Source: Marvania coccoides
Taxonomy: Eukaryota; Chlorophyta; Trebouxiophyceae; Chlorellales; Chlorellaceae
Assembly: GCA_963854735.1 (NCBI GenBank)
Contig: OY978099.1
Location: forward strand, 2,170,001-2,234,000
Direction: 5' to 3'
DNA length: 64,000 nt
The notes beneath the pieces are model-generated. The model did no database searches. It saw only the letters and a list, made by a program, of their open reading frames with translations, and was not told the DNA's origin. The position numbers were made by a program, and so were the translations under genes. This document shows, piece after piece, positions 22,184 through 62,525 of the stretch; position 1 is the first letter of the stretch; each line of letters begins with the position of its first letter.

Positions 22184-22445
22184 AGAGGGGAGGTCAAAAG
22201 TCTCAGGGCGCAGCACAACCATTTGAAGCGGAGCGCAGAAGATTCTACTTTGTTGATCATCAACGCGGACCTGTATTCTGCGTTGTGCTAATCAACGTTC
22301 GCTCCCAACCTCGGTCGTACCCGTCCGCGTGGTATAAGAAGTCAGCTTTTCAGTGGGACGCCACCAAGAAAACTTTTGTATCGAGACACGTGCCGCAGGA
22401 CTTCCAGTAGTGGGATGCGTTACATCATTTTGCAGAATGTTACAG

Positions 22446-26707: not shown

Positions 26708-26801
26708 CTGGGGTGCCGACTTTATTTTGGCAGACTTGAGAAGAGAGAAAGAAATTATTTTTTCAATTTTTATTTTAAGAAAATTGAGTATTTGATTTGA
26801 A

Positions 26802-43152: not shown

Positions 43153-43947
43153 AGAACATCCGATTTCTCCAGTACAGAAAGCGACATAATACGGATAGCG
43201 GCCGTCTTGCATACATGTACAGCTGTTCTATTGATTTGTGGTAGTTTCGAAGTAATGATCGCAGTATTAAGACCTCGAGACAATGCTCGTCAACATCGAA
43301 CAAGCAGAAACTGCAAATTGTGTATTGTTTAATATTGTCGAAGAAATGGGATAAGAAAGTCAACAATATTTTCATCAATTTTTACCCAAACTATGTTCGA
43401 AGAAGTGGGGGGGGAAATCTACTACCCAGATTTCCTCACCGATATCTTCATAGAATATTGATGTGTTAATGTTAAATGCGCATTGCAGCTAACTCCTTTC
43501 TATTCTGTCCAATCGGAGATGCACTGAGATGGTCATATTCCAACAGATAACCTCCTCCAGCAGCATAGGCAGGTGCTTAGGGAACTTGTCATCTTGTGCT
43601 CGGCGGCATGCACGAGAATCTGCGAGAAACGAAGTATTCCAATTTCTTCCTTACCAAAAATATCGAATTAAGCCTGCTTTAATCCTCAAAATATAAATCA
43701 TTAATATTTGTAATGATGAAAGTCGAACATGATGCCAGGCTGCCGAAGTCCAAAAGTCTCTATCGCACACAGGGACTCACATCCTCGATTGATGCGTGAC
43801 CAAAATCCGCTGGGACTCTACTTTTTCGAGCTGAAACAGGGCAATATTGGTATTTTATGGTATTTACAAGTGTAAGAGATGCAGTGGTGCGCTTTGCAGT
43901 GCATTCTGAACTTATTTTGAACCATGGTGTTGGAAGGGACTGATAAA
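43153..43947. other. Intergenic, no gene recognised
   Basis: AT-rich sequence between the transferase stop and a LINE tail; no supported gene or repeat. Confidence 0.4.
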
Positions 43948-44951
43948 TACATACATACATACATTACAGGTTTGAAGTCCGCACTAAGAAGCAACTAAGG
44001 CAACATAGCAGACTGGCACCGAAGTGCAAGCAGAAATAGTAATAATAAATTGATGAATGAACATGATAATGAAGAAAGACCAAAGAAAAAACCAACCGCT
44101 AAAAGAAACAGAGAAAAGAATAACAAAGGAAAAGAAAAGAGAAGCCTATATCCAACCACGCAGTTTCTCGTACTCGCCAGCGTCATGGCTGGCTTTAATG
44201 AAAGAAGCAACCTGCTTCGGAGCTTGCTGCAGAAACTGAAAAATATTCAGAGGAGAAGAAGGGGAAGAGGAAGAAGAAGATTGCGCGTCAGGGAATAAAG
44301 ATGGGTAGGATGCACGCATTGCTACCAAAGAAGGGCATGTGCAATGAAAAACCATGTGCTCTTCGTCGTCGCAAGAACCAGAAGCACACAAGCGGCATGT
44401 CCGCTGCGAATGCGGCCGCCCAACGTAGCGCCCCGTCTCCACCCCAAGATGATGCGAGCTGCAGCGGAATCTTGCCAAAGAGACCCGCACCGGGACCGAA
44501 AGGACAGAAGAAAGGTACTGCTGCAAAATATAAGAACTCATTGTGGTGTCGCCTCGAATTGCTGCCTTGTAAAAGTCAGTTTTCGTCCCCGATTGTTGAC
44601 GGTAAAAATCTATGTAGCGTTGGCGCATGGCCGCCTCTGCCAGCCTGGGGTCGTCCAGGTCGTCGCTCCCCGCGGGCACCACGCCGCTTTCCGCCACACC
44701 GCTTTCAAGACCTAAAGCGTCGATCAGGCACAGCACTTGCGCCGCCCAACAGCGCTGCGAAGATGAGTTTTGCAGCGCCAGCGCAAGGTTGTCCCGAAAT
44801 GCTGCCTTGAGCGTCACCCTGGTGTCAAGCAAGGTGTGGAGTCGCTCCCAGTACCCATTGATACGTTTTGACCAAGCGCACGCCAATGGGAAGCGACCAA
44901 ATCCCCCCAGTGTGACCACGTTGGCCGTGCCTTTGCGCACTACCAACACAT
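43948..44951 (-). mobile_element. 5'-truncated LINE 3' end, 1 kb
   Basis: Reverse-orientation copy with ATAC tail, 3' UTR and a single open frame (44,146-44,982) covering the last roughly 265 residues of ORF2, from the thumb (RKGTANVVTLGGFGRFPLACAW) through the zinc knuckle CRLCASGSCDDEEHMVFHC to the end. The frame is undamaged, so this is a young copy. It is truncated at CCAACACA, 44,951. Confidence 0.9.
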
Positions 44952-45285
44952 TTGCATATAAACGATCAGATACAACAAGCATTTAAGCAGAAACAAAATT
45001 ATAAAAATATTTCATCTAATCAACCCGGACGAAACCAAATTTTAACGCACCCCAAGCATATATATCTAACCATAACATTCCCCCCTTCATTTGCATCCCA
45101 TAACCAACCTATTCCCCAACCTTTTTCGCCAGCCTTACATTAGATCTTAGAAACTCCAACCGCTAATCTTCTTAAATCTCGTCCAATTTTATTTTATCTC
45201 CCATCAGTAATTCAACCTAATTTGTGTTTTTCCTCCTTTCCTCCTACCTTTCGATTGTATTGTTTGATTTCCGTCACCTAGAAGA

Positions 45286-46617
45286 ATGTTTTCGATTAGC
45301 AGTAATCTCATCTCATCTTCCCGTACCGTCATCAACACCTTGGGCAACAATAAGAAACATACTGATGCGCACAGCAAACTCCGTCGTGAACACTCTCTTA
45401 GTATCCCTACTTTGCCCCAGCTTCCATTTGGGAAGCAGAAATGCATTTACAATCGCGCAACTTTTGATGCAGCAGCGCTCGTGGCTCATTACTACGAGTC
45501 TGGCTGTGAGGCAGCAGGTGTCCCCACCAAAATCACCGGCCGCATCCGAACCACGGCCTGCGGCAAGCATCTTCTTGGTGTTGCCTTCCCCATCCCACGC
45601 TCTGAGTGGGACGGGACGGCCAACGCGCTTCCCCCCGGACCGCCGGTGATTGGTGTAGCTGTCAAACAACGCATGTACAAGTCACAGCCCGCTCTGGATG
45701 TCCTAGTGCCCCGCGAATTCAATGATAGGACTGTTTTCAAGTGGACAGTCTCTCGGATTGCGGATTTCCGGGCGCAACCTTCCCCAACGCCGCTGCCGGC
45801 CACCCCAGCCGGCCCCACACCGGTCCCACAGCCTGAGCATCCGCGTCAACTCTCTCCCTTAGTCACTATCCCCCCGGAGCTGCCCGCTCCCGCCGCCAAC
45901 GCCACCAACGCTGCCACGGCATCGCCATCATTGCGGATGAAAAAAATTGTCGTATATGGGCTGGACCATAGAATCAACGACAGCCTCCACACCGCTTTGG
46001 GGAAGTTTAAGGAGTTCTCTCGCAACTGTTTAAATATCGAATCCCTTGATGGCGTGTGTGCTCTGGAAACCCTTGTCTCTCACGACTTTTTTGGCCGCCC
46101 CCGCTCAGTTGTCGTCCTCGACGTCCCCCACGCAACCCGAAAAGCGATCTGGTGCGCGAAATCCCGGCTCTCAAGCTACGTCCAGGTGTCCATCGACTAT
46201 CACGTCGACCACCTGGCCCACCGCGCCCGCATCGCTCAACGCAGACGCCCCGCTGTGCTACACCGCTCAGACCGCGACTGCTGGAGGCGCCCTCACCCGG
46301 CGCCCACCCCCGATTTTAACCCGCCGTGTATCATCATCCCTATGGCGTGCCCCACCCCCCAGCAGCATGTCTGCTTTCCCCCGAGGGCACCCAGACGGCA
46401 CGGTCAGCTTCCCCGCTCCCGCCCCCAATGCCGCCCCCACACGCGTCCTACTCGTGATGGGCAAGCGGCTGTCCCACCACGCCAGCCTGTCCCCTCCACC
46501 GCGGTGCGCGCCGTCCCACAGCACCACCCGCGGCGGGGAAATGACAACCAGGCCGGCCCAAATCGCGCGGCCCCAGACCGCACGCCGGGTGTCACCACAC
46601 CCGTAAACTCTCAATAG
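45286..46617 (+). CDS. LINE ORF1 protein
   Basis: 443 codons. The N-terminal third (to about 140) is of mixed composition with GRIRTTACGKHLLGVAFPIP, followed by LDVLVPREFNDRTVFKWTVS. A proline-rich linker occupies about 165-220. A folded-looking stretch follows (KKIVVYGLDHRINDSLHTAL to about 330) that may be an RNA-binding fold, ending in an R/P-rich tail. ORF1 proteins of LINEs bind element RNA; that role is assumed from position. The frame may shift near 46,240, because an alternative frame continues smoothly there. A damaged copy lies at 35,745. Confidence 0.65.
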   Translation: MFSISSNLISSSRTVINTLGNNKKHTDAHSKLRREHSLSIPTLPQLPFGKQKCIYNRATFDAAALVAHYYESGCEAAGVPTKITGRIRTTACGKHLLGVAFPIPRSEWDGTANALPPGPPVIGVAVKQRMYKSQPALDVLVPREFNDRTVFKWTVSRIADFRAQPSPTPLPATPAGPTPVPQPEHPRQLSPLVTIPPELPAPAANATNAATASPSLRMKKIVVYGLDHRINDSLHTALGKFKEFSRNCLNIESLDGVCALETLVSHDFFGRPRSVVVLDVPHATRKAIWCAKSRLSSYVQVSIDYHVDHLAHRARIAQRRRPAVLHRSDRDCWRRPHPAPTPDFNPPCIIIPMACPTPQQHVCFPPRAPRRHGQLPRSRPQCRPHTRPTRDGQAAVPPRQPVPSTAVRAVPQHHPRRGNDNQAGPNRAAPDRTPGVTTPVNSQ

Positions 46618-46647
46618 GGGGGCGGGAGTCAAGGGGAAACGGCCACC

Positions 46648-48692
46648 GTGGTCCGCCGCAGCCCCTGGCTTCTCCTGCTCAACGTAAAAGGCCTCCTCCA
46701 AAGCGAGCCGTCCGCTGTTTTCTCACTTTTTCGAGGGGAGCGCCTTGTCATCCTTACAGAAACATGGCTGAGCGACGAAGAAACTCCCCCAACGGTGCCA
46801 AACTACCGCGCCTACAATTTCCCACGCCCAACCGCGTCAACAACGGCGGCGGGAGGCGCCCGCGGGGGAGTGGCGGTCTACGTTTCTCTGGACCTGGAAT
46901 CATTGGCCAGAGGAACACTACCACGGTGGCCAATTTTCTTGGCTCCGATTTGATAAAGAGGCCGGACTGCCCCAGGATTTGTTTATTGCCGCCTGCTATT
47001 TTAAACCAAATGACCCTGACATGACTGACGCGTGCTTTTGCTTGGAACAACAGGTTGCCCAAGCGAGTGGAATGGGCAACGTAATCGTCGCTGGTGACTT
47101 TAACGCGCACACCGGAGCGTCGGCGCAGCGGCGGAATGAAGATGTTGCGCGGCCGCTAAACGAGATGGGGAAATGGATTTTAGGCATGGAGGAGGCCATT
47201 GCCGAAATCTTCATCGCCAACGGTAGAGTCGCCGGCGACACCTCTGGTAACTTTACTTTCTGGAATTCACGTAACCAAAAATCTACCACGGACTATATTT
47301 TACTTGACCAAGACCTCCTTTCCAAGGCTAGCCTCGAGATAGAGGGACCCCCACCGCACGAGAGGCTGGACCACTGCCCCCTCAGGCTCAGCCTCCATGA
47401 TTTCTATCAGATGATCTGGCGCTGGTGGCCACGAGCATCGAGGGGCTACAATTGCAGCTGGCGGCACTTTCGGAATACGCAGCGGAGTGGGACCTCACCG
47501 TGAGCCTGGCAAAGACAAAGGTGATGTCGCTGGGGGGGGGGGAGGCGGACCTATAATCGTTCGGGTCACCTACAGGGGGGTGCAGCTGGAGGAGGTGGCA
47601 GAGTTCAAATATTTAGGCGTGATATTTACGACTGGAAGGGATTTTGGTGCTGTGGCAGCGGCGGCACGGCTGAAAACAGCGAGGGGGGCGCTGGCGGTGA
47701 TGTGGCGGCGGTGCGCACAGCTGGGGATCACATCGGCACGACTTCTTGGCGAATTCTTTAATGCGGTGGTGATCCCAACATTGGGATACGGAGTAGAGAC
47801 CTGGGGGCCAGCCCAGGTGGCAGCTGCGGTGGGCGGTGACGGCAACGACAAGTGCGAGATATTCTACCGAGCCTTCTTGCGGCGTGTGTTGGGAGTACGC
47901 AAAGGCACGGCCAACGTGGTCACACTGGGGGAATTTGGTCGCTTCCCCTTGGCGTGCGCTTGGGCGAAACGTATCTATAGGTACTGGGAGCGACTCCACA
48001 CCTTGCGTGACACCAGGGTGACGCTCAAGGCAGCATTTCGGGACAACCTTGCGCTGGCGCTGCAAAATTCATCTTCGCAGCGCTGTTGGGCGGCGCAAGT
48101 GCTGTGCCTGATCGACGCTTTAGGTCTGGAAAGCGGTGTGGCGGAAAGCGGCGTGGTGCCCGCGGGGAGCGACGACCTGGACGACCCCAGGCTGGCAGAG
48201 GCGGCCATGCGCCAACGCTACATGGATTATTACCGTCAACAATCGGGGACGAAAACTGACTTTTACAAGGCAACAATACGAGGCGGTGATACCACAATGA
48301 GTTCTTATATTTTGCAGCCGTACCTTTCTTCTGTCCTTTCGGTTCCGCGGCGGGTCTCTTTGGCAAGATTCCGCTGCAGCTCGCATCATCTTGGGGTGGA
48401 GACGGGGCGCTACATTGGGCGGCCGCATTCGCAGCGGACATGCCGCTTGTGTGCTTCTGGTTCTTGCGAGGACGAAGAGCACATGGTTTTTCACTGCACA
48501 TGCCCTTCTTTGGTAGCAATGCGTGCATCCTACCCATCTTTATTCCCTGACGCGCAATCTTCTTCTTCGTCTTCCCCTTCTTTTCCTCCGAATCTTTTAC
48601 AGTTTCTGCAGCAAGCTCCGAAGCAGGTTGCTTCTTTCATTAAAGCCAGCCATGACGCTGGCGAGTACGAGAAGCTGCGTGGTTGGATATAA
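46648..48692 (+). pseudogene. LINE ORF2 (endonuclease - deleted RT - C-terminal domain)
   Basis: The endonuclease starts LLLLNVKGL and ILTETWLSDEETPP. After a deletion/frameshift at about 46,905-46,960 it continues with FIAACYFKPNDPDMT, VIVAGDFNAHTGAS, STTDYILLDQDLL and LDHCPLRLSLHDF, which carry the expected N, D-Y and H residues. RT motifs 1 to B are deleted. DDLALVATSIEGLQLQ follows in another frame, then, after a poly-G run at 47,530, the long open frame 47,487-48,692: YRGVQLEEVAEFKYLGVIFTT, LGYGVETWGPAQ, ACAWAKRIYRYWERLHTL, and the zinc knuckle CRLCASGSCEDEEHMVFHC. The C-terminal 60 residues are serine-rich and end GEYEKLRGWI. Confidence 0.88.
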
Positions 48693-48900
48693 GATTTTCT
48701 TTTCTTTTCCTTTGTTATTCTTTCTCTGTTTCTTTTAGCGGTTGGTTTTTCTTTGGTCTTTCTTTATTCTCATTTTCATTCATCAATTTATTATTATTAT
48801 TTCTGCTTGCACTTCGGTGCCAGTCTGCTATGTTGACTTAGTTGCTTCTTTGTGCGGACTTTAAACCTGTAATGTATGTATGTATGTATGTACACGCCGC

Positions 48901-49547
48901 AAGAAGGCTCGGTAGAAAATCTCGCACTTGTCGTTGCCGTCACCGCCCACCGCAGCAGCCACCTGGGCTGGCCCCCAGGTCGCTACTCCGTACCCCAATG
49001 CTGGGATCACCACCGCATTAAAGATTTCACCAAGAAGTCGTGCCGGTGTGATCCCCAGCTGTGCGCACCGCCGCCACATCACCGCCAGCGCCCCCCTCGC
49101 TGTTTTCAGCCGTGTCGCCGATGCCACAGCACCAAAATCCCTTCCAGTCGTAAATATTACGCCTAAATATTTGAACTCTGCCACCTCCTCCAGCTGCACC
49201 CCCCTGTAGGTGACCCGAACGATTATAGGTCCGCCTCCCCCCCCCCCAGCGACATCACCTTTGTCTTTGCCAGGCTCACGGTGAGGTCCCACTCCGCTGC
49301 GTATTCCGAAAGTGCCGCCAGCTGCAATTGTAGCCCCTCGATGCTCGTGGCCACCAGCGCCAGATCATCTGCATGGAGGAGAGGGGGGACGGTGTCGTGC
49401 AATTGTTGGCAGATTTGCAGAGTCTCCTTGGCGTAAAATGGCATAGGAAAGATCATCAATGTAGAAACCAAACAGGTCACAGCTGGCAGGGTCTCCCTGC
49501 TTCAGCCCCAAAGTGGACAGGAATGGGGCTGAAAGACCCTCCAAAGT
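48901..49547 (-). pseudogene. LINE RT fragment (left arm)
   Basis: Reverse-strand LINE piece covering RT motif B (TLGLKQGDPASCDLFGFYIDD), motif C (HADDLALVATSIEG) and the start of the thumb (FKYLGVIFTT to FYRAFL). It carries frame damage at a one-base insertion near 49,402 and at the poly-C run. It supplies part of the RT missing from the 45-48.9 kb element. Confidence 0.88.
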
Positions 49548-49738
49548 GCTGAAGGAACTGCGGATTTGCTGCTGGACGCAGTTGTTCGCCTGCATGGAGT
49601 GCCCAAGGTTATCATTCATATCATTTGCTTCTTTGTGCGGACTTTAAACCTGTAATGTATGTATGTATGCTGAAGGAACTGCGGATTTGCTGCTGGACGC
49701 AGTTGTTCGCCTGCATGGAGTGCCCAAGGTTATCATTT
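49548..49738 (+). repeat. 70-bp direct repeat flanking a 47-bp LINE tail
   Basis: GCTGAAGGAACTGCGGATTT ... CCAAGGTTATCAT occurs at 49,548-49,617 and again at 49,669-49,738. Between them lies only CTTCTTTGTGCGGACTTTAAACC plus the TGTATG tail of a LINE. This reads as a severely 5'-truncated LINE insertion into Ty3 integrase with an unusually long target duplication. Mirrored at 56,617-56,807. Confidence 0.85.
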
Positions 49739-50950
49739 CGGACATGGACTCTAAATTTACGTCTAACTTTTGGCGGCAATGGTGGTGGGCTTTGGCACGG
49801 AGTTGGCCATGACCACCGCCATGCACCCAGAAGCCGACGGGCTGGCTGAGCGAAATCATCGCTCCATAGAAGCCATGTTGCGGCCCTATGTTGACACGCA
49901 TGCCACGGACTGGGACACGCGGTTGCCCTTGCTAGAGTTTGCCTATAACAACTCCAAGCACAGCGCGACCGGCGCAACCCCGTTCATGCTGTTGTACGGA
50001 TTCACCCCCCGCACACCAGCATCCCTGCTGGCAGAGTCTGCAGCGCCGCAGATGGACAACCCCCTGGCGGAAGAACGGTTGACAAAGCAGCGCGCCGCGC
50101 TGGCAGCGGCAAACGAGTGCCTGCCGTGCAAAGCGGCGCATGAAGGACAGGGTGGACCTGCACAGATCAGAGCACACCTTCCAGGTGGGCGACAAGGTGT
50201 TAGTCAACTGCAAGTTTTTGAAACTGCCTGACACTGGCCCTGGCGAGAAGCTGATGCCGCCATTCTGGGGACCGTTTGAAGTCACAGCAGTGCCACCCCG
50301 TGTCAACGTGCGTTTGAAGCTGCCTGATGGATCAAGGAGGAGCCCTACATTCCACACCTCGCAGTTGAAGGTCTGGGTTGGGGATGACGGCTCTTTCCCT
50401 GGGCGCGAGCTGGAGGAGCCGGGGCCCGCAGAGTGGGATGATGAAAGAGAAGAACACTACACGGTGGGGCGTTTTTTTGAAGCGTCGCACGCGGAAGTTT
50501 AGGGGCGTGGAGCACGAGCGCATCTTGGTGCGCTGGGCTGGCTACGGGCCGGAAGGTGATTTGTGGTTGAGGAGAGATTTGTGGTTGAGGAGATTTGGTA
50601 AAGGATATTGATCCTGAAACCTTTACAATATTATAATCTGAAATGGAGCAGGCTGTGGTGATTCCCACAGCAACACCGCAAGTTAGAGGCGGCAGGCGTG
50701 GACGCAAGAAAAACACCTAGCTGCTGCCACAGAAATTTACCTGAAGAAATTCACCTGAACTACATGGCATGAAGCATTTTGCTTGAAGATTTTCCACGTT
50801 TTATTTTCATTCTATCTATTATTATGCATGTTTTTCTTGAGGGCTGTTGCCCATGTTTGATTTTTATGCTGCGTGAGAGTTTCTCATGCATGCTTGTCTT
50901 GAAGAATAGTATGAACGACGAGGACGTCTGTTTCTTAAAGGAGGGGATGA
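49669..50950 (+). pseudogene. Chromovirus integrase C-terminus and chromodomain (left arm)
   Basis: Integrase core end: LLLDAVVRLHGVPKVIISDM and SKFTSNFW, then HPEADGLAERNHRSIEAMLR with the catalytic Glu region, and LLEFAYNNSKHSATGATPFML. After a one-base frame change near 50,125 a GPY/F module follows (FQVGDKVLVNCKFLKL, FWGPFEVTAV, FHTSQLKVW). After another near 50,470 comes a chromodomain, GVEHERILVRWAGYGPEGD. The purine tract AAAGGAGGGGATGA (50,937-50,950) precedes the LTR. Two frame changes and the missing 5' part make it inactive. Confidence 0.88.
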
Positions 50951-51073
50951 TGTTACAGTGTGGACAGCATGCGCAGCATGATCGGAAGGTTCTTATTCAA
51001 GGCCTCATCACCCGCACCCTACTGATTCCTCCTTAGTTCTTAGTATACATAATATAGTGAAGAGCCTGTAACA
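50951..51073 (+). repeat. 3' LTR of chromovirus (left arm)
   Basis: 123 bp, TGTTACAGTGTGGACAGC ... GAGCCTGTAACA, nearly the same as the solo LTR at 18,366. It carries the 3' end of the element; no 5' LTR lies in the arm. Confidence 0.9.
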
Positions 51074-51270
51074 AATATATTTTTGTAAATTCCTAGGACC
51101 ACCCTGCCGCTTTTGCACGGCCTCCTTAGGGCACTCCCCCTAGGGCAGATCGAATACCAGAGTTTCTGGCTTATATTTTACACAATTTCAAACGGCGTGT
51201 TGTTCTGTTTTTTTGTAAAATTTTAATCGTTCCAGTTTTGGTGACATTAACAAACCATTATCTGAACTAT

Positions 51271-52242
51271 TTATTGAGAAGAAATGGCTTCAGTCGGTGT
51301 ACGCAAGTGAACAGTGTTTTGACTGTCTAAAAATGACTTGGTGTATTCATGCATATTCAAGAAATTTGTGACGCTCATCAATTTGGGAGACGAAAGGTGA
51401 ATGTGCTCATATGTAATTGCAACTGGATCAACAAAATCCAAAGGCAGCGATGTGACAATTGCATCATCAATGCCTTCAACATCGATTTGAATGTATCCAT
51501 AATCCACGTTATAATTACTGAGAAGTTTGCTAACACGCACAGTGGGCACAACATGAGCATCTATGAGAGCAAAAGGATCAGTTTTTTTCAAATTGACATA
51601 AAATGTTGTGAAGAGTTGGCTCATGTTGACTGAACATGCTTGATTCATCCATGTCGCTGATTGGTACCCATGCCGTGCAAAGAGCTCGTCATCCACATTT
51701 CCATCAGTCTTCATTTTCCAGCAATATAGTTGAATTGACGTGACATTGGACGAGTCGGGTACAATAGCAGCATGGACCGCAACTGCATTTGGAATATCTT
51801 TGATATTTTGTTGTAGCTTTTTGAAGAGTAGTGGATTCGCCTCGACCAATATTTTTTTCCAGCCTGCAAATTTGGTTCCAAACATAGAAAAACCGGGATC
51901 ATTGGCAACTGGACCAACATTTGCACCAATCACCAAGTAAGCAGGAGCGCAAGATGCAGTGGGTTGAACTAGTTCAGACAGATGAATCAGTACTTTTGTC
52001 AAATTGTGCTTGTGTTCTGCAGTTGTTGCCAGAACGCCACTGCTGCTTATTTCCGAGAACTTGCAGCGACTACTATACATGGGTTGGCCGAGGAAATTAT
52101 CAAATACCATATTGATACTCAGCTTCTGCCGTGAAATGACCCGACATGCAAACCATATGAAGAACACTGATAATATCACAGCTATTAAATTAGCAGGCTG
52201 CGAGTTTCGTCGCAACCGCCGAAAGCTATACAAGCACGTCAT
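51271..52242 (-). CDS. FkbM-family methyltransferase, membrane anchored (left palindrome copy)
   Basis: 323 codons, single exon. The anchor lies at 18-34 (NLIAVILSVFFIWFACR) after a basic tail. The SAM-binding strand-loop is LVIGANVGPVAND (103-115), VEANP at 133-137 ends strand 2, and AVAVHAAIVPD follows. TVRVSKLLSNYNVDYGYIQI leads into DVEGIDDAIVTSLP (254-267), the FkbM signature with intact D-V-E-G. The C-terminus is YEHIHLSSPKLMSV. Sugar O-methylation in the Golgi is inferred from family and anchor. Its protein is identical to that of the right-arm copy, so the two are a very recent duplicate or are kept alike by gene conversion. It differs strongly from the FkbM protein at 7170. Confidence 0.78.
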   Translation of the reverse strand: MTCLYSFRRLRRNSQPANLIAVILSVFFIWFACRVISRQKLSINMVFDNFLGQPMYSSRCKFSEISSSGVLATTAEHKHNLTKVLIHLSELVQPTASCAPAYLVIGANVGPVANDPGFSMFGTKFAGWKKILVEANPLLFKKLQQNIKDIPNAVAVHAAIVPDSSNVTSIQLYCWKMKTDGNVDDELFARHGYQSATWMNQACSVNMSQLFTTFYVNLKKTDPFALIDAHVVPTVRVSKLLSNYNVDYGYIQIDVEGIDDAIVTSLPLDFVDPVAITYEHIHLSSPKLMSVTNFLNMHEYTKSFLDSQNTVHLRTPTEAISSQ

Positions 52243-53119
52243 TTGAAGGAGAATATAACTATTTTATTATTAAAATGAAATTGTGGAACCACGCGAAGTC
52301 TAATCTTTGAACTGCTTAGATGTTTGTGATTGATTGAATCGCGTGGAAGAAGATATGTATGTATCTATCTGCATAATTAGATTTTGAAGGAGCGCAACAT
52401 TATCACGTGTACAATAATAATGATGCGGCAGGTCGGAAAAAAATATAGGCAGAATGGAGAAATGTGTGCAATTCAAATGTACATAAGTACACTTATACTA
52501 GTTAAAGACACTCTCTCGATGTTCTGCGGTTCTGTTCGTTCAGCGCAGATTGCTGTCTTTGTAACCAAGAGATAGCTGTCAGGTGCCCCAGGGCGGGCTG
52601 GCCGCTGGGCAATGTCCGAGTGTAATGAAGCTCTGTCTTCACTTCCAAAGCACGTTCAAATAAAAAAATAATGAATTGATATGCCCTGCTATATACGCGC
52701 GTTTTCCTCTCGAGGAAAAGCTGTCACCATTCTCGCTAGGCTATTTCTGGCTGTGTTTAATGCTGTTTTCGTGTTAGCTGTTACAATTAATAATAATAAA
52801 TATGAAACCAGACATCAGCGCGGCGCCTTGAGGTCTTCAGAGGAGGTCACTCTGGTCAAGGCGCTGACCAACCAACATCCACAAGGAAACAAAGCAAAAT
52901 AATCTTGCAAACACACCAACAAAGCAAATGTATATAAGCAACACATGGTAGTTGTATGCAGCCGGCGTCCCTGCCCATACAGAGTGTAGGACTTAGACAC
53001 AATAGGGGCGGGGCTGGCTCCGCATGGTCTTTTCTTATAACTTCCATCCTTGGCAATGGCCAGGGCCGCATCTCTGCACAAGGAACGCAAAAAAAATCAA
53101 ACTTCAGTGCCAGTCTGCT
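52243..53119. other. Inner palindrome arm, intergenic
   Basis: Upstream region of the left FkbM gene. Short open frames (one of 73 codons with a hydrophobic stretch at 52,681-52,902, mirrored in the other arm) lack known motifs. The innermost 20 bases (CTTCAGTGCCAGTCTGCTA) match the LINE 3' UTR. Confidence 0.45.
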
Positions 53120-53235
53120 ACGGGGCCTTAGTTGCCCTTTTGTGCGGACTTTCCACCGTTATGGCTGTAAGTTGTATGAAGTGCACGTACAAAGAGTCAA
53201 CATCTTTTCAGCCACACCGACCCCTGCATTTTTTT
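53120..53235. other. Palindrome spacer, 116 bp
   Basis: Unique sequence between the arms. Its left part (CCTTAGTTGCCCTTTTGTGCGGACTTT) continues the LINE 3' UTR that starts in the left arm, so the palindrome centre sits in a LINE end. Confidence 0.85.
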
Positions 53236-54112
53236 AGCAGACTGGCACTGAAGTTTGATTTTTTTTGCGTTCCTTGTGCAGAGATGCGGCCCTGGCCATT
53301 GCCAAGGATGGAAGTTATAAGAAAAGACCATGCGGAGCCAGCCCCGCCCCTATTGTGTCTAAGTCCTACACTCTGTATGGGCAGGGACGCCGGCTGCATA
53401 CAACTACCATGTGTTGCTTATATACATTTGCTTTGTTGGTGTGTTTGCAAGATTATTTTGCTTTGTTTCCTTGTGGATGTTGGTTGGTCAGCGCCTTGAC
53501 CAGAGTGACCTCCTCTGAAGACCTCAAGGCGCCGCGCTGATGTCTGGTTTCATATTTATTATTATTAATTGTAACAGCTAACACGAAAACAGCATTAAAC
53601 ACAGCCAGAAATAGCCTAGCGAGAATGGTGACAGCTTTTCCTCGAGAGGAAAACGCGCGTATATAGCAGGGCATATCAATTCATTATTTTTTTATTTGAA
53701 CGTGCTTTGGAAGTGAAGACAGAGCTTCATTACACTCGGACATTGCCCAGCGGCCAGCCCGCCCTGGGGCACCTGACAGCTATCTCTTGGTTACAAAGAC
53801 AGCAATCTGCGCTGAACGAACAGAACCGCAGAACATCGAGAGAGTGTCTTTAACTAGTATAAGTGTACTTATGTACATTTGAATTGCACACATTTCTCCA
53901 TTCTGCCTATATTTTTTTCCGACCTGCCGCATCATTATTATTGTACACGTGATAATGTTGCGCTCCTTCAAAATCTAATTATGCAGATAGATACATACAT
54001 ATCTTCTTCCACGCGATTCAATCAATCACAAACATCTAAGCAGTTCAAAGATTAGACTTCGCGTGGTTCCACAATTTCATTTTAATAATAAAATAGTTAT
54101 ATTCTCCTTCAA

Positions 54113-55084
54113 ATGACGTGCTTGTATAGCTTTCGGCGGTTGCGACGAAACTCGCAGCCTGCTAATTTAATAGCTGTGATATTATCAGTGTTCTTCATAT
54201 GGTTTGCATGTCGGGTCATTTCACGGCAGAAGCTGAGTATCAATATGGTATTTGATAATTTCCTCGGCCAACCCATGTATAGTAGTCGCTGCAAGTTCTC
54301 GGAAATAAGCAGCAGTGGCGTTCTGGCAACAACTGCAGAACACAAGCACAATTTGACAAAAGTACTGATTCATCTGTCTGAACTAGTTCAACCCACTGCA
54401 TCTTGCGCTCCTGCTTACTTGGTGATTGGTGCAAATGTTGGTCCAGTTGCCAATGATCCCGGTTTTTCTATGTTTGGAACCAAATTTGCAGGCTGGAAAA
54501 AAATATTGGTCGAGGCGAATCCACTACTCTTCAAAAAGCTACAACAAAATATCAAAGATATTCCAAATGCAGTTGCGGTCCATGCTGCTATTGTACCCGA
54601 CTCGTCCAATGTCACGTCAATTCAACTATATTGCTGGAAAATGAAGACTGATGGAAATGTGGATGACGAGCTCTTTGCACGGCATGGGTACCAATCAGCG
54701 ACATGGATGAATCAAGCATGTTCAGTCAACATGAGCCAACTCTTCACAACATTTTATGTCAATTTGAAAAAAACTGATCCTTTTGCTCTCATAGATGCTC
54801 ATGTTGTGCCCACTGTGCGTGTTAGCAAACTTCTCAGTAATTATAACGTGGATTATGGATACATTCAAATCGATGTTGAAGGCATTGATGATGCAATTGT
54901 CACATCGCTGCCTTTGGATTTTGTTGATCCAGTTGCAATTACATATGAGCACATTCACCTTTCGTCTCCCAAATTGATGAGCGTCACAAATTTCTTGAAT
55001 ATGCATGAATACACCAAGTCATTTTTAGACAGTCAAAACACTGTTCACTTGCGTACACCGACTGAAGCCATTTCTTCTCAATAA
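54113..55084 (+). CDS. FkbM-family methyltransferase, membrane anchored (right palindrome copy)
   Basis: Identical in its 323-residue translation to the left-arm gene on the opposite strand. The two genes point away from each other with their starts 1870 bp apart across the spacer, so both promoters lie inside the inner palindrome. It has the same anchor (18-34), SAM loop (103-115) and FkbM signature (251-260). Both copies appear functional by sequence. Confidence 0.78.
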   Translation: MTCLYSFRRLRRNSQPANLIAVILSVFFIWFACRVISRQKLSINMVFDNFLGQPMYSSRCKFSEISSSGVLATTAEHKHNLTKVLIHLSELVQPTASCAPAYLVIGANVGPVANDPGFSMFGTKFAGWKKILVEANPLLFKKLQQNIKDIPNAVAVHAAIVPDSSNVTSIQLYCWKMKTDGNVDDELFARHGYQSATWMNQACSVNMSQLFTTFYVNLKKTDPFALIDAHVVPTVRVSKLLSNYNVDYGYIQIDVEGIDDAIVTSLPLDFVDPVAITYEHIHLSSPKLMSVTNFLNMHEYTKSFLDSQNTVHLRTPTEAISSQ

Positions 55085-55281
55085 ATAGTTCAGATAATGG
55101 TTTGTTAATGTCACCAAAACTGGAACGATTAAAATTTTACAAAAAAACAGAACAACACGCCGTTTGAAATTGTGTAAAATATAAGCCAGAAACTCTGGTA
55201 TTCGATCTGCCCTAGGGGGAGTGCCCTAAGGAGGCCGTGCAAAAGCGGCAGGGTGGTCCTAGGAATTTACAAAAATATATT

Positions 55282-55404
55282 TGTTACAGGCTCTTCACTA
55301 TATTATGTATACTAAGAACTAAGGAGGAATCAGTAGGGTGCGGGTGATGAGGCCTTGAATAAGAACCTTCCGATCATGCTGCGCATGCTGTCCACACTGT
55401 AACA
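55282..55404 (-). repeat. 3' LTR of chromovirus (right arm)
   Basis: Mirror of 50,951-51,073. Confidence 0.9.
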
Positions 55405-56686
55405 TCATCCCCTCCTTTAAGAAACAGACGTCCTCGTCGTTCATACTATTCTTCAAGACAAGCATGCATGAGAAACTCTCACGCAGCATAAAAATCAAAC
55501 ATGGGCAACAGCCCTCAAGAAAAACATGCATAATAATAGATAGAATGAAAATAAAACGTGGAAAATCTTCAAGCAAAATGCTTCATGCCATGTAGTTCAG
55601 GTGAATTTCTTCAGGTAAATTTCTGTGGCAGCAGCTAGGTGTTTTTCTTGCGTCCACGCCTGCCGCCTCTAACTTGCGGTGTTGCTGTGGGAATCACCAC
55701 AGCCTGCTCCATTTCAGATTATAATATTGTAAAGGTTTCAGGATCAATATCCTTTACCAAATCTCCTCAACCACAAATCTCTCCTCAACCACAAATCACC
55801 TTCCGGCCCGTAGCCAGCCCAGCGCACCAAGATGCGCTCGTGCTCCACGCCCCTAAACTTCCGCGTGCGACGCTTCAAAAAAACGCCCCACCGTGTAGTG
55901 TTCTTCTCTTTCATCATCCCACTCTGCGGGCCCCGGCTCCTCCAGCTCGCGCCCAGGGAAAGAGCCGTCATCCCCAACCCAGACCTTCAACTGCGAGGTG
56001 TGGAATGTAGGGCTCCTCCTTGATCCATCAGGCAGCTTCAAACGCACGTTAACACGGGATGGCACTGCTGTGACTTCAAACGGTCCCCAGAATGGCGGCA
56101 TCAGCTTCTCGCCAGGGCCAGTGTCAGGCAGTTTCAAAAACTTGCAGTTGACTAACACCTTGTCGCCCACCTGGAAGGTGTGCTCTGATCTGTGCAGGTC
56201 CACCCTGTCCTTCATGCGCCGCTTTGCACGGCAGGCACTCGTTTGCCGCTGCCAGCGCGGCGCGCTGCTTTGTCAACCGTTCTTCCGCCAGGGGGTTGTC
56301 CATCTGCGGCGCTGCAGACTCTGCCAGCAGGGATGCTGGTGTGCGGGGGGTGAATCCGTACAACAGCATGAACGGGGTTGCGCCGGTCGCGCTGTGCTTG
56401 GAGTTGTTATAGGCAAACTCTAGCAAGGGCAACCGCGTGTCCCAGTCCGTGGCATGCGTGTCAACATAGGGCCGCAACATGGCTTCTATGGAGCGATGAT
56501 TTCGCTCAGCCAGCCCGTCGGCTTCTGGGTGCATGGCGGTGGTCATGGCCAACTCCGTGCCAAAGCCCACCACCATTGCCGCCAAAAGTTAGACGTAAAT
56601 TTAGAGTCCATGTCCGAAATGATAACCTTGGGCACTCCATGCAGGCGAACAACTGCGTCCAGCAGCAAATCCGCAGTTCCTTCAGC
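55405..56686 (-). pseudogene. Chromovirus integrase C-terminus and chromodomain (right arm)
   Basis: Mirror of 49,669-50,950 with the same two frame changes and at least one amino-acid difference (Ser for Pro after FEVTAV). The shared damage shows that the element was already broken before the arms duplicated. Confidence 0.88.
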
Positions 56687-56807
56687 ATACATACATACAT
56701 TACAGGTTTAAAGTCCGCACAAAGAAGCAAATGATATGAATGATAACCTTGGGCACTCCATGCAGGCGAACAACTGCGTCCAGCAGCAAATCCGCAGTTC
56801 CTTCAGC
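56617..56807 (-). repeat. 70-bp direct repeat around LINE tail (right arm)
   Basis: Mirror of 49,548-49,738. Confidence 0.85.
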
Positions 56808-57454
56808 ACTTTGGAGGGTCTTTCAGCCCCATTCCTGTCCACTTTGGGGCTGAAGCAGGGAGACCCTGCCAGCTGTGACCTGTTTGGTTTCTACATTGAT
56901 GATCTTCCCTATGCCATTTTACGCCAAGGAGACTCTGCAAATCTGCCAACTTTGCACGACACCGTCCCCCCTCTCCTCCATGCAGATGATCTGGCGCTGG
57001 TGGCCACGAGCATCGAGGGGCTACAATTGCAGCTGGCGGCACTTTCGGAATACGCAGCGGAGTGGGACCTCACCGTGAGCCTGGCAAAGACAAAGGTGAT
57101 GTCGCTGGGGGGGGGGGAGGCGGACCTATAATCGTTCGGGTCACCTACAGGGGGGTGCAGCTGGAGGAGGTGGCAGAGTTCAAATATTTAGGCGTAATAT
57201 TTACGACTGGAAGGGATTTTGGTGCTGTGGCATCGGCGACACGGCTGAAAACAGCGAGGGGGGCGCTGGCGGTGATGTGGCGGCGGTGCGCACAGCTGGG
57301 GATCACATCGGCACGACTTCTTGGCGAATTCTTTAATGCGGTGGTGATCCCAACATTGGGGTACGGAGTAGCGACCTGGGGGCCAGCCCAGGTGGCTGCT
57401 GCGGTGGGCGGTGACGGCAACGACAAGTGCGAGATTTTCTACCGAGCCTTCTTG
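56808..57454 (+). pseudogene. LINE RT fragment (right arm)
   Basis: Mirror of 48,901-49,547. Here the motif B to motif C frame is continuous (GLKQGDPASCDLFGFYIDDL through LLHADDLALVA) because the one-base insertion of the left arm is absent. It still breaks at the poly-G run. Confidence 0.88.
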
Positions 57455-57511
57455 AATCCTATTGGTTTAGCAAGCCGAGCTGGGAACTCAAGTAGAGCGG
57501 GGCTCCTTCAT

Positions 57512-58159
<648 letters not shown>

Positions 58160-58354
58160 CAAACTATTACAACTTGGTTTCGACTCATTTGCAAAGAACC
58201 ATTACACTCGAGGAACTCGAGAATATACCTTGCGCAACTCAAGTACACACCTCCAAGCACACATACAAAACCCGGTAGAAGACAAGGATAGATTCCGCTT
58301 CTATCCAACTACTTCCCCCGGTCCCGCCGACTACTTCCCCCTCGACCTACTTAT

Positions 58355-59581
58355 TTGCCGGCCATGACAGACCCCAACATCTCCGCCGGCTCCGTCCAAG
58401 TGGACCAGGCGACCTTCAATCATATACTCTCCCAAGTCCATGTCCTCACCAACCAACAAGAAGGGTTGCGGGCACACGTGGAAACCCTCAGCCAAGAAAG
58501 AGACTCTCTCCGCCAAGCCGCTGCCTCCGCCAACGCGGCCCTTCGTCAAGCAAGCACCGCCTTCATCCAACAAGAGGCCAAGGTGTCCAAATTCTCGGGC
58601 GAGGCTAACACCATCACCGGAGAAGACTTCCTCAAAGAAGTCTCGGCTGTCGCCTTCCTCGGACGCACGCTCACACACCACGAGAAGATCTCCATCGCCG
58701 TGCGCAGCACCTCTGGCCCCGCGCGCGAATGGTGGGTCACCGTTTCCACCCAAGCTTACCCCGCCGGCCCCTTCGCATCGTTTGAAGATTTCGCCACGGC
58801 CCTCAAGCAGCAGTTTGCCATCGTGATCTCCAAGGACATCGCCGCCAACGCCCTGCGCACCATCAAGCAGAAGTCCAACGAGTCTGTCGCCGCCTACCAA
58901 ACCCGCTTCGCCTCCAAGGACTCCGAGCTCGACACGTTCAAGTGGTCAATCCTCCGCAGCAACCGCCTAGCCCTGGACACCCTCGTCACTGGAAAGCGCG
59001 CCGAAGACCCGGCCTACGAGATCAAGCTTAACGGCGCTGTCCGTTACCTCGCGCAGCTGGAGGGCAACCCCTACCCGCTGCAGCACGACTCCTACACCCC
59101 CATGGAAGTCAACGCTTTCCGTAACAACCCCCATCTCGGCCACCGCCGCCACAGCTTTTACAACCAACAGCAGCTACTGCCGGATCACCTGCGCGTAAAT
59201 AACAACTCTCGTTCCTCCCGCAGCCCCAACGGCTACCGCAGCTTCAACGGCTCCAACGGCGTCCACAGCTCCCATCGCTCCAACAGCTCCAACAACCCTG
59301 GCCACTCCAACTGGCGCGGCAACAACCAGCAGCCGGCCAACCAGCGCTTTAGGGTAAACCCTAAACCGCCCCGCCGGAGTGGGCCACCCCTGCTTCCGGT
59401 GCAACTTGCCCAACTGGACTCCAGGCCACCAGTTCGTCCCAAACGCCAACCGGACTCAGTAGTGCCCGCTGAGTCCGCCTCCCCAAGACCGCCGCCGCCC
59501 CCGACTACTACTACCACGCCTACCGTGACAACTACTACCAAGCCTACCCTGACTACTACTACTGCCCCGACCGCACCTTGA
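58355..59581 (+). CDS. Ty3-like Gag
   Basis: 408 codons. Coiled-coil-like N-terminus (ILSQVHVLTNQQEGLRAHVE), then the capsid-like region: FIQQEAKVSKFSGEANTITG, EDFLKEVSAVAFLGRTL, SIAVRSTSGPAREWWVTVS, FEDFATALKQQFAIVISKDI and ALRTIKQKSNESVAAYQTRF. After that come a serine/asparagine-rich segment and a threonine/proline tail. A knuckle-like CFRCNLPNWTPGH at about 59,390-59,430 lies in the +1 frame, not in this one, so either a frameshift occurred or the frame changes on translation there. Related to the Gag at 18,524. Confidence 0.85.
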   Translation: MPAMTDPNISAGSVQVDQATFNHILSQVHVLTNQQEGLRAHVETLSQERDSLRQAAASANAALRQASTAFIQQEAKVSKFSGEANTITGEDFLKEVSAVAFLGRTLTHHEKISIAVRSTSGPAREWWVTVSTQAYPAGPFASFEDFATALKQQFAIVISKDIAANALRTIKQKSNESVAAYQTRFASKDSELDTFKWSILRSNRLALDTLVTGKRAEDPAYEIKLNGAVRYLAQLEGNPYPLQHDSYTPMEVNAFRNNPHLGHRRHSFYNQQQLLPDHLRVNNNSRSSRSPNGYRSFNGSNGVHSSHRSNSSNNPGHSNWRGNNQQPANQRFRVNPKPPRRSGPPLLPVQLAQLDSRPPVRPKRQPDSVVPAESASPRPPPPPTTTTTPTVTTTTKPTLTTTTAPTAP

Positions 59582-60727
59582 GAAGCATCCACATCATACT
59601 CAAGACCCCCTGCCGCACCCATTCCTGACCAATACTGGCGCCCAACGGCCGCGCCTCGCCACCGCCCAGCGCAAGAAGAAATTTCTCAAGACAAGTTCAA
59701 GTACCCCCGTACCCCTCTGCGCCGCACGCCAGAGCCTCGCGCAGCTCCCAGCAGCAATCCAACAACTAGTTATTACGTGCCAATTGCCACACATGGCCGC
59801 TCTGAGGGCGAAGACGAAGAGCGTATTTCACCGGCAGACAAGCCCTGCCCGGTAGCCTCCGCCCGCGAGGATTTCTCCGTAGATAAGACCGCGCCGCCAC
59901 CGCGCCACCTGCCCGCGCCACAGCCTGATCACCTGTCGCCCGAGGCCAGCACCTCTACTGCTGCCGCATGCAGCACCGACCTGCCACAGGCCTGCACCAA
60001 GACCATGGCCAGGCCAGCCACCAAGACCCCGGCGAGGCCTGCCGCCGAAACCACGGCCAATACGACCGCCAAGACCCACGCCAGCGCCGCCCAGCCCAAG
60101 GCCAACGCCGCAGCCACCGCCGCTGCCAAGAAAAACAAGAACAAGACCAGCCGCCTCCCGTGCCCCATCCAAGAGCACCTGGACATCATGAGCAACGACA
60201 TTGAGCTCCAATGACTCTACGCCTACACGGATGCCATCCTCCCCAGGGAGTTTTGCCGCCGCCTCCCCACCTTTTGTCTCCCCGGCCGCATCGGCGCCAT
60301 CGACGACGCCAACGTCCTTTTTGACTCTGGCGCTACGGGCAGCACCCTTATCTCCCAGGCCACCGCCAAGCGGCACGGTTTCACCATTGCCCCCGGCCCC
60401 CCACGTTCCGTCGAAGTTGCCGATGGCCGCGTCACCATCCAAAGCGACATTGTCCCCCGCTTGGACCTGGAGATCCGCACCTCCACGGGCACCTTCTCGA
60501 CAACCCTTTCCAACGTGTTAGTTCTGCCCTTAGCCAATTATGACATCACCCTCGGCGAATATTTCTTCGAACAACATCAAGTAGACCTCTCCACCAGCCG
60601 CAAATCCGTCACCCTCGGCCCCATTGGCACCCGCACCGCCCTTGCCATCGGCGAGCCCGCTCCCCCGCGGCCATCCCTGGTCTCCGCCTCCGCGCTCCAC
60701 CGCTCTCTCCGCCACCACTATGATTAA
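59582..60727 (+). pseudogene. Linker and aspartic protease of the Ty3-like element
   Basis: Same frame as gag. A Pro/Ala/Thr-rich linker (to 60,211, ending SNDIELQ) is followed by TGA, then the protease: VLFDSGATGSTLISQATAKR with the catalytic D-S-G at about 60,324, VEVADGRVTIQSDIV, LVLPLANYDITLGEYFFEQH, and a stop at 60,725-60,727. The domain is intact apart from the upstream TGA. It would cleave Gag; with no polymerase the element is non-autonomous. Confidence 0.75.
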
Positions 60728-60924
60728 GGGGGGGTGCTTATGCAGGTCTTACGAAATTGCTTACAGTAGGCGTATGCATAGGCTTACCGTAGGCTTACCA
60801 AAAATATGTAAGCCTATTGTAAGCCTAGAGCTCTTGTAAGCATAGGCTTGTGCAGGGCTTATGCAGGGCTTAACTTGGCACAAACGTAGTCCAGGCTTAC
60901 GATTTGTAAGCCATGCTTACAACC
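60728..60924 (+). repeat. TAAGCC/GGCTTA-rich block
   Basis: Begins GGTGCTTATGCAGGTCTTACG (compare 39,284) and contains about a dozen TAAGCC, GGCTTA or CTTATGCAGG words in both orientations, ending GTAAGCCATGCTTAC. Dense short inverted words of this type are usual in subterminal regions of DNA transposons. Confidence 0.6.
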
Positions 60925-61563
60925 ACAAATCTAGAAAGCCACGAATATGGGTTTAATGGGTTTACATCTGGTTGTTACGTCTCCTACAGAAGGTGCTCTT
61001 ATAGAGACCTGCAAGGCGACGTGCCACTTCCCGCCACAGTAAGGCGGGTACCCCCTTCCATCCGCTGGGATCGACCCCCGGTACGGTGGACGTACGGATA
61101 CTGCCACTACGCCGGTGACCGCTCCGCCGCCCACAGTTAAGGCTCTGGCCCCCGCCTTCCGGAGTCCCCCAGCGGCGCGACCGACTAAAATTAAGGGAAA
61201 AGCAGGGTTCTCCTGACGGCAACGGCCCGTCAGGTTTGGGGTTCACGCTTGGGCAATGCTGGCCCGCCCAGCACCCCTCCCATCTACAGCGGTCACTCAA
61301 CCCCTGGCTAAAGGGTTTTTGATGTAGTACCCGGTGTGCTCACTGAAATAAGTGGCGCCAGCCTTTTGTACCCGTCCATTAGAGACTGCGATACCACGGG
61401 GAAGTGATGCATCCGACGTTGCAGTGCAGTAAACTACCAAAGTTTACGCACTGGCAGCTTCAATGAGCTAACTAGTAGGGAGCGCGAACCACCGAACGTG
61501 CATACATAATAAATGGAAGTTAAATAAACAGACTCATCTCGCAAAGTTTCATCTCATAACTTG
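60925..61563. other. No gene recognised; GC-rich then AT-rich
   Basis: 60,950-61,300 is GC-rich with short frames on both strands and no motif. 61,300-61,560 looks like a 3' UTR or leader. No repeat partner in the window. Confidence 0.35.
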
Positions 61564-62525
61564 GCTCTCTCTCTCTGTCTCTCTCTCTCTCCGTGCGCCA
61601 GTCTTGTACGCCTCCTACACGTCCTCCAGGATTGCCCGCACCAGGGCCGCCACCTGGGTGAGTTCTGCCTCCTCCAGCTCCAGCAGGCTTCTCGTCGTTG
61701 GTGATGCAGCCAGCGCTGCAGTCGCCGGAGCGCGCGCTTGGAGGAGGGCGGGGCAGGTACGCAGGATGTGCGCGTCATGGTGCTGGCCCTGCTCCGCGCA
61801 GAGCGGGCACTGAGCTGGTGGGTGCCAAACTCCGCTCTCCCCCGCTCGTGGGACACGAATCCACCGCACCCCAAGCCGAAAGCGCGACAGCGCTGCTCTG
61901 TCCGCTCGCTGCAGCAAGCTGAGGTGGCGGTGCTGCTCGTACGCCTCGACGGTGAGCGGCATTTGGTACCAGGTGTCGAGGTAGTGGCGCATCTGCTGGC
62001 TGGGCGACGTCATCAGTGCTGCCAGCCACTTCTCCTCGGCGTTGGTGTGCAGCAGCTCGGAGGCGTCGTCCTTGAGAGCCCCGGCAATGGTCATGACACC
62101 CATCGCTTGCAGCATAGCGCGCGCCTCCGCTGCCCAGCACGGTGGTGCCGCCGCCCTCGGCGCCGCCGCTTGCAGCCCAACCGCCGCCGCCGCCGCCGCC
62201 GTCACCTCCGCTGCTGCTCGCATCGCCTCATCTCCCTCCGCCATCTCCACGCTGGCCAGGAACGCCTGGCGGGCGAGGTGGTCCTCTGGGAGCTCGTGCA
62301 GCCGAGTCCAAAAGCGCAGCACCGCTGTAGCGAAACGGATTTCCACCGGCCACATCGCTGCCTCCACCAGCAGCGCCGCCGTATTGATCCCCATCGTTGG
62401 AACCCCCAGCAGCGGGCGCAGAAAACACATGAGCAGGCGGTGGCTGCCTATATGGCTGCTGCCCAGCGGGTCTGCCGCCCACGCCGTCGCTGCTGCAGCC
62501 CCCCACACCTCCGTGCCCATAAGCA
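61564..62525 (-). pseudogene. C-terminal end of a second LINE family
   Basis: Reverse-strand frame of about 300 codons down to 61,615: MCFLRPLLGVPTMGINTAAL, a thumb-like IRFATAVLRFWTRLHEL, an alanine-rich linker, LLQRADRAALSRFRLGVRW, then a C-x-x-C-x(7)-H-x(4)-C knuckle (CPLCAEQGQHHDAHILRTC). The layout equals the C-terminus of the main LINE, but the identity is low, so it is a different family. The 3' end is a CT/GA-rich stretch at 61,561-61,594. The part upstream of the thumb is missing. Confidence 0.75.

What the first reader, a model, noticed from the sequence alone, without database searches (positions are those of the whole stretch)
48901..57454. 8.5-kb near-perfect palindrome with divergent identical FkbM genes
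Arms of about 4219 bp mirror around base 53,177.5 with a 116-bp spacer. The FkbM proteins are identical, whereas the LINE portion at the outer ends has several differences and one-base indels. This is either a recent inverted duplication kept alike by gene conversion or an assembly/sequencing artefact (a hairpin read). Arm-specific substitutions and different outer junctions (LINE tail on the left, Ty3 LTR on the right) favour a real structure.
Basis: seen in the sequence. Interest (0 to 1): 0.75.

Follow-up and report, generated by a model that had tools for sequence, protein, structure and literature searches.

The report
Inverted gene duplication near algal telomere
A green alga carries an FkbM-like (methyltransferase-like) gene twice, as near-perfect mirror copies near a transposon-rich chromosome end; the mirror looks like a real product of faulty break repair, of a kind known from yeast and from another green alga.

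Summary
The palindrome is real in the assembly: arms 48900-53120 and 53235-57454, 99.79% identical (8 substitutions, 1 indel), spacer 114 bp. It lies about 85 kb from the right telomere of a telomere-to-telomere 2.31-Mb chromosome of a green alga, trebouxiophyte by one marker gene. Each arm holds one identical, divergent FkbM-like gene with no other match in the genome, among LINE and Ty3 debris. The left outer edge is a LINE inserted in an older LINE, so the left arm sits in its original setting. The right outer edge is not a transposon end: the Ty3-like element there is cut internally. The centre joins a truncated LINE tail to about 82 bp resembling one place on C4, then turns back, with 2-3 bp microhomologies. 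I read the right arm as an inverted copy made during break repair with template switching. A sequencing hairpin is unlikely but cannot be excluded without reads. Gene conversion is not shown. The chromosome end holds 11 of 29 FkbM matches in 2.7% of the genome, resembling in content the outlier chromosome of Ostreococcus tauri, which also has large inverted duplications.

The parts
43944..44950 (-). 3' part of an older LINE copy, LINE(-); its other half is 48892-about 49544 in the left arm
   Evidence: Matches LINE positions 48892-47885 at 95.5%
44951..48892 (+). LINE(+) copy inserted in LINE(-), about 3-4 bp target duplication (CAC/ACAC, my reading); its tail end is the left outer edge
   Evidence: 5' start shared, within about 10 bp, with two further copies that have other upstream sequence (window-scale -3915 and 67357); flanks read; endonuclease domain by Pfam in 46979-47503
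48900..53120 (.). Left arm of the palindrome (read as the original)
48892..49544 (-). LINE(-) stretch, reverse transcriptase by my reading of the translation (no Pfam test), outer end of the left arm
   Evidence: 43 genome matches listed, a lower bound; translation
49547..49737 (.). 70-bp direct repeat around a 51-bp insert that holds a LINE tail (45-bp match); present in both arms
49669..51075 (+). Ty3-like 3' fragment; SH3-like domain by Pfam, integrase part by my reading only (no Pfam match in 49770-50231)
   Evidence: PF24626 E = 2.3e-10 in 50140-50502; the four longest other copies 89-92%
51082..51170 (.). About 89-bp short repeat dispersed over many chromosomes
51271..52242 (-). FkbM-like gene, left copy, 323 aa, hydrophobic N-terminal stretch (my reading)
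   Evidence: PF05050 E = 3.3e-4, 21.3 bits, under the cut-off of 22.7
53101..53152 (+). Truncated LINE 3' tail (52 bp); only its first 20 bp are mirrored in the right arm
53153..53234 (.). About 82-bp filler, 85% like one place on C4; no other match in the genome search
53121..53234 (.). Spacer (114 bp)
53235..57454 (.). Right arm of the palindrome (read as the inverted copy)
54113..55084 (+). FkbM-like gene, right copy, same protein
57455..57508 (+). Start of the Ty3-like element, cut at its 5' side; right outer breakpoint is 57454|57455
   Evidence: Four other copies run on upstream of this base (L060, L061, C3:2160 kb, window 27840), alike for about 90 to 400 bp
57509..58158 (+). Separate (ATT)n-tailed repeat nested in the Ty3-like element
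58292..59578 (+). gag frame of the Ty3-like element
   Evidence: PF03732 and PF19259 in 58355-59581; open frame

Best explanation
A genuine local inverted duplication. A chromosome break left an end inside a LINE tail (53152) on the left side and an end inside a Ty3-like element (57455) on the right side, and whatever lay between was lost. Repair synthesis from the left end switched template twice: first about 82 bp from a copy of an element like the one at C4:1172282, then back onto the left arm in inverted orientation, 32 bp inward from the break. It copied about 4.2 kb outward and was joined to the Ty3 side. The result is two divergent, complete FkbM-like genes. Shown: geometry, element identities, truncated elements at the centre and right edge, the left arm's original context. 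Inferred: the break, the template switches, the direction of copying, and loss of the sequence in between.
For: The left arm's LINE(-) continues across the LINE(+) insertion to its 3' end and into nearly single-copy flank, so the left arm is in situ. The right arm ends at a base that is internal to the Ty3-like element in four other copies. At the centre the left side runs 32 bp further into the LINE tail than the right side, then a non-symmetric 82-bp filler. Microhomology: TTT and TA at the two central joins; TCTTG is shared by the two partners close to the right join. The 51-bp insert between 70-bp repeats is in both arms and so is older than the duplication.
Against: The right join is not a perfect microhomology join (5 bp usual in the Ty3-like copies is absent). 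The right arm stops 8 bp short of the mirrored LINE(+)/LINE(-) junction, an unexplained coincidence that may point to another order of events. The left arm holds most of the polarised changes (6 left, 1 right, 1 ambiguous), whereas a freshly copied right arm might be expected to hold them; this imbalance is not significant (two-sided sign test 0.125, my arithmetic). Such short microhomologies are weak evidence by themselves.
Confidence: 0.6

Rival explanations
1. Sister-chromatid fusion or fold-back priming at a short inverted repeat made a hairpin-capped and then dicentric chromosome; a later break in the second copy was healed by joining to a chromosome end that begins in the Ty3-like element (breakage-fusion-bridge).
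For: This route is demonstrated in yeast, with inverted duplications centred on short inverted repeats and ends healed by repeat-mediated telomere capture (PMC10622511, abstract and passages). A 20-bp inverted repeat sits at the centre here, and the locus is near a telomere.
Against: The filler between the arms is a separate element, and the arm is only 4.2 kb; no pre-existing inverted repeat can be shown in an ancestral sequence. It cannot be told from the best explanation by sequence alone.
Confidence: 0.2
2. An older and longer palindrome, trimmed at its right end (perhaps by cleavage at the LINE insertion site, which lies within 8 bp of both outer edges) and kept alike by gene conversion between arms.
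For: Outer edges differ by only 8 bp in arm coordinates; all 8 substitutions lie in the outer third.
Against: The left flank beyond the LINE has no second copy apart from a 318-bp partial match elsewhere on C3. Right of 57454, up to C3:2244000, only LINE tail pieces were found (67424-67552, 71794-72009), not the mirrored LINE 3' half; beyond that the DNA was not read. The skew rests on about three clusters. Conversion was not shown directly.
Confidence: 0.12
3. Sequencing or assembly artefact (hairpin read or misjoined haplotypes).
For: No reads were available; identical arms hinder polishing (recalled, no call); most polarised changes are in one arm and clustered.
Against: A template-complement read is not expected to have a 114-bp non-symmetric spacer; the two outer flanks are different genomic sequence; the left edge is a natural insertion junction; each arm has at least one private change (50296 left, 50304 right); the contig has telomere repeats at both ends.
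Confidence: 0.07
4. The palindrome is itself a mobile element with 4.2-kb terminal inverted repeats carrying FkbM (fold-back type).
For: Shape only.
Against: One locus in the genome; outer ends inside a LINE; no matching target duplication at the two ends.
Confidence: 0.01

Closest known systems
Large inverted repeat region of the small outlier chromosome (chr 19) of Ostreococcus tauri (PMC5082852, passages read)
   Same: Green alga; inverted duplication of surface-glycan genes in a transposon-bearing region; a predicted FkbM methyltransferase (ostta19g00560) lies in a block transcribed in virus-resistant lines
   Different: There about 180 kb on its own small chromosome with expression data; here 8.5 kb with one gene at the end of a 2.31-Mb chromosome of an alga that one marker places among trebouxiophytes; no expression or virus data
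Break-induced inverted duplications (fold-back inversions) in yeast (PMC10622511, abstract and passages read)
   Same: Interrupted palindrome, short inverted repeat at the centre
   Different: Here a foreign 82-bp filler in the centre, a short arm, and a right join inside a transposon
ODIRA inverted amplification (PMC10766186, passages read)
   Same: Interrupted palindromic junction
   Different: ODIRA starts as an inverted triplication with junctions at 5-6-bp inverted repeats 40-80 bp apart; here two copies, a 20-bp repeat and a filler

Membership tests
Break-induced inverted duplication (fold-back or template-switch class) | Near-identical inverted arms with a short non-symmetric spacer | tested here: met
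Break-induced inverted duplication (fold-back or template-switch class) | Distal breakpoint that is not a transposon terminus | tested here: met
Break-induced inverted duplication (fold-back or template-switch class) | Pre-existing inverted repeat or microhomology at the switch points | tested here: inconclusive
   2-3 bp at the two central joins, 5 bp near the right join; no ancestral allele to check
Palindrome maintained by gene conversion | Arms more alike than their age allows | tested here: inconclusive
   Skew of differences; no outgroup to give an age
Fold-back transposon | Several copies or a target-site duplication at the ends | tested here: not met
FkbM methyltransferase (PF05050) | Pfam match over the curated cut-off | tested here: not met
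   21.3 bits against 22.7, E = 3.3e-4; not among the 29 genome matches
FkbM methyltransferase (PF05050) | Invariant residues of clear FkbM proteins of the same genome | tested here: inconclusive
   10 columns invariant among 5 proteins, including G105, G109, N135, P136, D253, G256, at 15-21% identity to the other four; hhalign 71.8% over residues 27-171
Mamiellales-type small outlier chromosome | Separate small low-GC chromosome | tested here: not met
   The locus is the end of a 2.31-Mb chromosome; GC samples are patchy
Mamiellales-type small outlier chromosome | Enrichment in surface-glycan and methyltransferase genes and transposons | tested here: inconclusive
   11 of 29 FkbM matches and 18 of 43 listed LINE matches in the last part of C3; glycosyltransferases were not searched

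The most novel reading that the evidence does not exclude
The end of chromosome C3 is an independently evolved counterpart of the virus-immunity outlier chromosome in a trebouxiophyte. Recurrent inverted duplication between transposon tails changes the dose of lineage-only, Golgi-type glycan methyltransferase genes, and the palindrome is a live, reversible copy-number state under selection by viruses.
Probability: 0.1. Interest if true: 0.8.

Novelty: new member of a known kind. Interest (0 to 1): 0.4.

Why it matters
Long interrupted palindromes are described as unstable and rare in natural genomes (PMC10766186, passage). This one keeps enough junction detail to infer how it formed and in what order some of its transposons arrived. 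It duplicates a gene for which no relative was found in the searches made, in a region rich in FkbM matches. If strains differ here, it would extend the link between glycan-gene turnover and rearrangement from Ostreococcus to another green-algal class.

Tried and rejected
Structure of the FkbM-like protein: folded without an alignment, mean pLDDT 34.4, useless, so no fold search was run. Homologues: none at E <= 0.001 among 818 candidates in the protein search, which reaches only relatives sharing short exact words; none in viral contigs; none in PDB sequences at E <= 1. Rfam over 43000-62000 at the gathering threshold: nothing. Mirrored left flank elsewhere: only a 318-bp partial match on C3. 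Mobile-element reading: rejected. Left-arm states borrowed from other LINE copies by conversion: at 5 of 6 columns no other copy with a letter there (9 or 11 of 11 rows) has the left state; at 49029 four of 11 have it. An earlier count said all six are left-derived and that the inner 3716 bp have 2 differences; the calls show five plus one ambiguous, and 3 differences. Two species guesses, Porphyridium and Choricystis: the first dropped after the marker search gave green algae, the second because its published assembly is 14.6 Mb (abstract in the listing). The 18S search did not complete, so the organism is placed by one uridine kinase tree only.
Full report
Observation. Self-comparison of the window finds one dominant inverted repeat: 48900-53120 against 53235-57454, 4221 columns, 8 mismatches and 1 gap. 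The substitutions are at 49001, 49025, 49029, 49046, 49404, 49448, 50296 and 50304 in left-arm coordinates, with a one-base indel at 49403. The spacer is 114 bp. The two divergent 323-aa ORFs have the same translation. In the genome, this protein matches only these two places, and the DNA 51100-53240 has no other long match.

Setting. The window is C3:2170001-2234000 of a 22.46-Mb genome in 15 contigs. C3 is 2,312,286 bp and starts with CCCTAAA and ends with TTTAGGG repeats, so it is telomere to telomere, and the palindrome ends about 85 kb from the right telomere. A uridine kinase from C3 was placed in a tree of 23 rows: its closest rows are two unnamed records (98/96); an MMETSP transcript and a further unnamed record join at 95/94; Chlorella and Parachlorella join at 87/92. 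One gene is thin evidence; I call it a trebouxiophyte green alga with that caveat.

Anatomy of an arm, from the outside inward (left arm coordinates): a LINE stretch on the minus strand, reverse transcriptase by my reading (48892-49544); a 70-bp direct repeat around a 51-bp insert that holds a LINE tail (49547-49737); a Ty3-like 3' fragment (49669-51075; PF24626 in part of it); a dispersed short repeat (51082-51170); the FkbM-like gene; about 0.86 kb of upstream DNA; a truncated LINE tail starting at 53101. The inner arm is 41.2% GC against 54.6% in a 10-kb sample of mid-C3.

Left outer edge. LINE(-) is split: 43944-44950 holds its 3' part and 48892-49544 its continuation. Between them sits a LINE copy in plus orientation, 44951-48892. 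Two further copies share its 5' start but, apart from a few bases, not the sequence before it (the query began at 44951, so that call alone could not show this). The flanks give a 3-4 bp target duplication by my reading. Left of 43944 the DNA has no second copy apart from a 318-bp partial match. So the left arm sits in its original context.

Right outer edge. The arm stops at 57454 in the same LINE, 8 bp short of where LINE(+) is inserted on the left. Then comes a Ty3-like element starting at AATCC. In four other copies the element runs on upstream of that base, alike for about 90 to 400 bp. The edge is therefore a breakpoint within the element, not an insertion end. A nested (ATT)n-tailed repeat occupies 57509-58158, and gag follows.

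Centre. The left side runs on to 53152 in the LINE tail, whereas the right arm starts back at the mirror of 53120. Between lies about 82 bp that is 85% like C4:1172282-1172369 and has no other match in the genome search. The joins share TTT and TA with their presumed templates; at the right edge both partners have TCTTG close by. An unrelated filler is hard to get from a hairpin read and easy to get from template switching (inference).

Which arm changed. In the LINE stretch, at 5 of 6 columns no other copy with a letter there has the left arm's base (9 of 11 rows have letters at two of these columns, 11 of 11 at three); at 49029 four of 11 have it. Two copies, L044 and L045, identical to L046, were merged with it; one 147-bp match was dropped as too short; and only the copies returned as loci (15 of 43 matches, arms included), plus the window, were aligned. 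At 50296 the left arm, and at 50304 the right arm, departs from four other Ty3 copies. So 6 left, 1 right, 1 ambiguous; the indel was not polarised. Both arms have own changes, which speaks against a read artefact, but the imbalance is not significant. All 8 substitutions lie in the outer third of the arm: about 1e-4 if independent, 0.037 if taken as three clusters. This may reflect conversion of the inner part, or clustered mutation, or selection; it is open.

The gene. PF05050 matches at E = 3.3e-4 but under the curated cut-off. Against four other FkbM-type proteins of the same genome it is 15-21% identical, with 10 invariant columns; a profile comparison gives 71.8% over residues 27-171. 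The N-terminal hydrophobic stretch (about residues 16-40, a helix in the otherwise useless model) suggests a type II membrane protein, by inference. No homologue was found in the protein, viral or PDB searches.

Neighbourhood. Of 29 PF05050 matches in the genome, 11 lie in the last 0.62 Mb of C3, 2.7% of the genome (binomial tail 1.5e-10; the boundary was chosen after seeing the data). Of 43 listed LINE matches, 18 lie in C3:1.97-2.31 Mb (arms included; the list is a lower bound). Right of the palindrome are a methyltransferase and a PC-esterase match under its cut-off. GC samples are patchy, not a clean step. In O. tauri, chromosome 19 carries glycan genes, methyltransferases, transposons and a large inverted repeat region of about 180 kb, and an FkbM gene lies in a block transcribed in virus-resistant lines (PMC5082852, passages). 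The likeness is in content; the separate small chromosome is not met here.

Mechanism. I favour break repair with two template switches and about 4.2 kb of inverted copying, with the right arm as the copy (0.6). Fold-back or sister fusion followed by breakage (PMC10622511, abstract and passages) is the nearest rival (0.2). Two searches aimed at palindromes or inverted duplications in green or micro-algae listed none that I recognised as the same; I saw 12 of 85 and 10 of 289 papers, titles and starts of abstracts only, so no claim of absence is made.

Verdict. Real in the assembly, probably real in the cell, well explained by known processes. Its worth lies in the legible junctions and in the region around it.

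Noticed in passing
7620-8839 and 12437-13657: Direct 1.2-kb duplication at 98.7% overlapping two further FkbM matches (7371-7892; 12453-12704, the latter with a stop): another FkbM duplication in the window.
   Followed up: partly
C3:1695955-2312286 (window within): 11 of 29 FkbM-domain matches of the genome and many LINE copies cluster at this chromosome end.
   Followed up: partly
48892 and 57454: The left LINE insertion point and the right breakpoint fall within 8 bp in arm coordinates; unexplained coincidence.
   Followed up: partly
49547-49737 (mirror 56618-56808): Exact 70-bp direct repeat around a 51-bp insert holding a LINE tail; an unusually long target duplication if that is what it is.
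   Followed up: no
51082-51170: About 89-bp repeat, roughly 85-96% alike, on many chromosomes; no Rfam match at the gathering threshold; nature unknown.
   Followed up: partly
47408-47410; C12:207076-207553; C11:380426-380903; 40019-40786: LINE(+) seems to lack a stretch that the arms hold; copies on C12 and C11 stop at the same query base (480) and one at 40019-40786 ends at 47410, hinting at a non-autonomous subfamily.
   Followed up: no
C5:649479, C3:109969, C1:1395802: Three LINE copies on three chromosomes identical over 656 bp: the family was active recently.
   Followed up: no
57983-58158: Perfect (ATT)58.7 tract at the end of a repeat family found on many chromosomes with varied 5' ends.
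   Followed up: no
L031:5127-6026 and L031:9079-9999: Methyltransferase (PF13489) and PC-esterase-like protein under its cut-off, right of the palindrome: further possible surface-glycan genes.
   Followed up: partly
22443-22646 and 26507-26710: 204-bp perfect inverted repeat next to 97% direct LINE copies, another possible small rearrangement.
   Followed up: no
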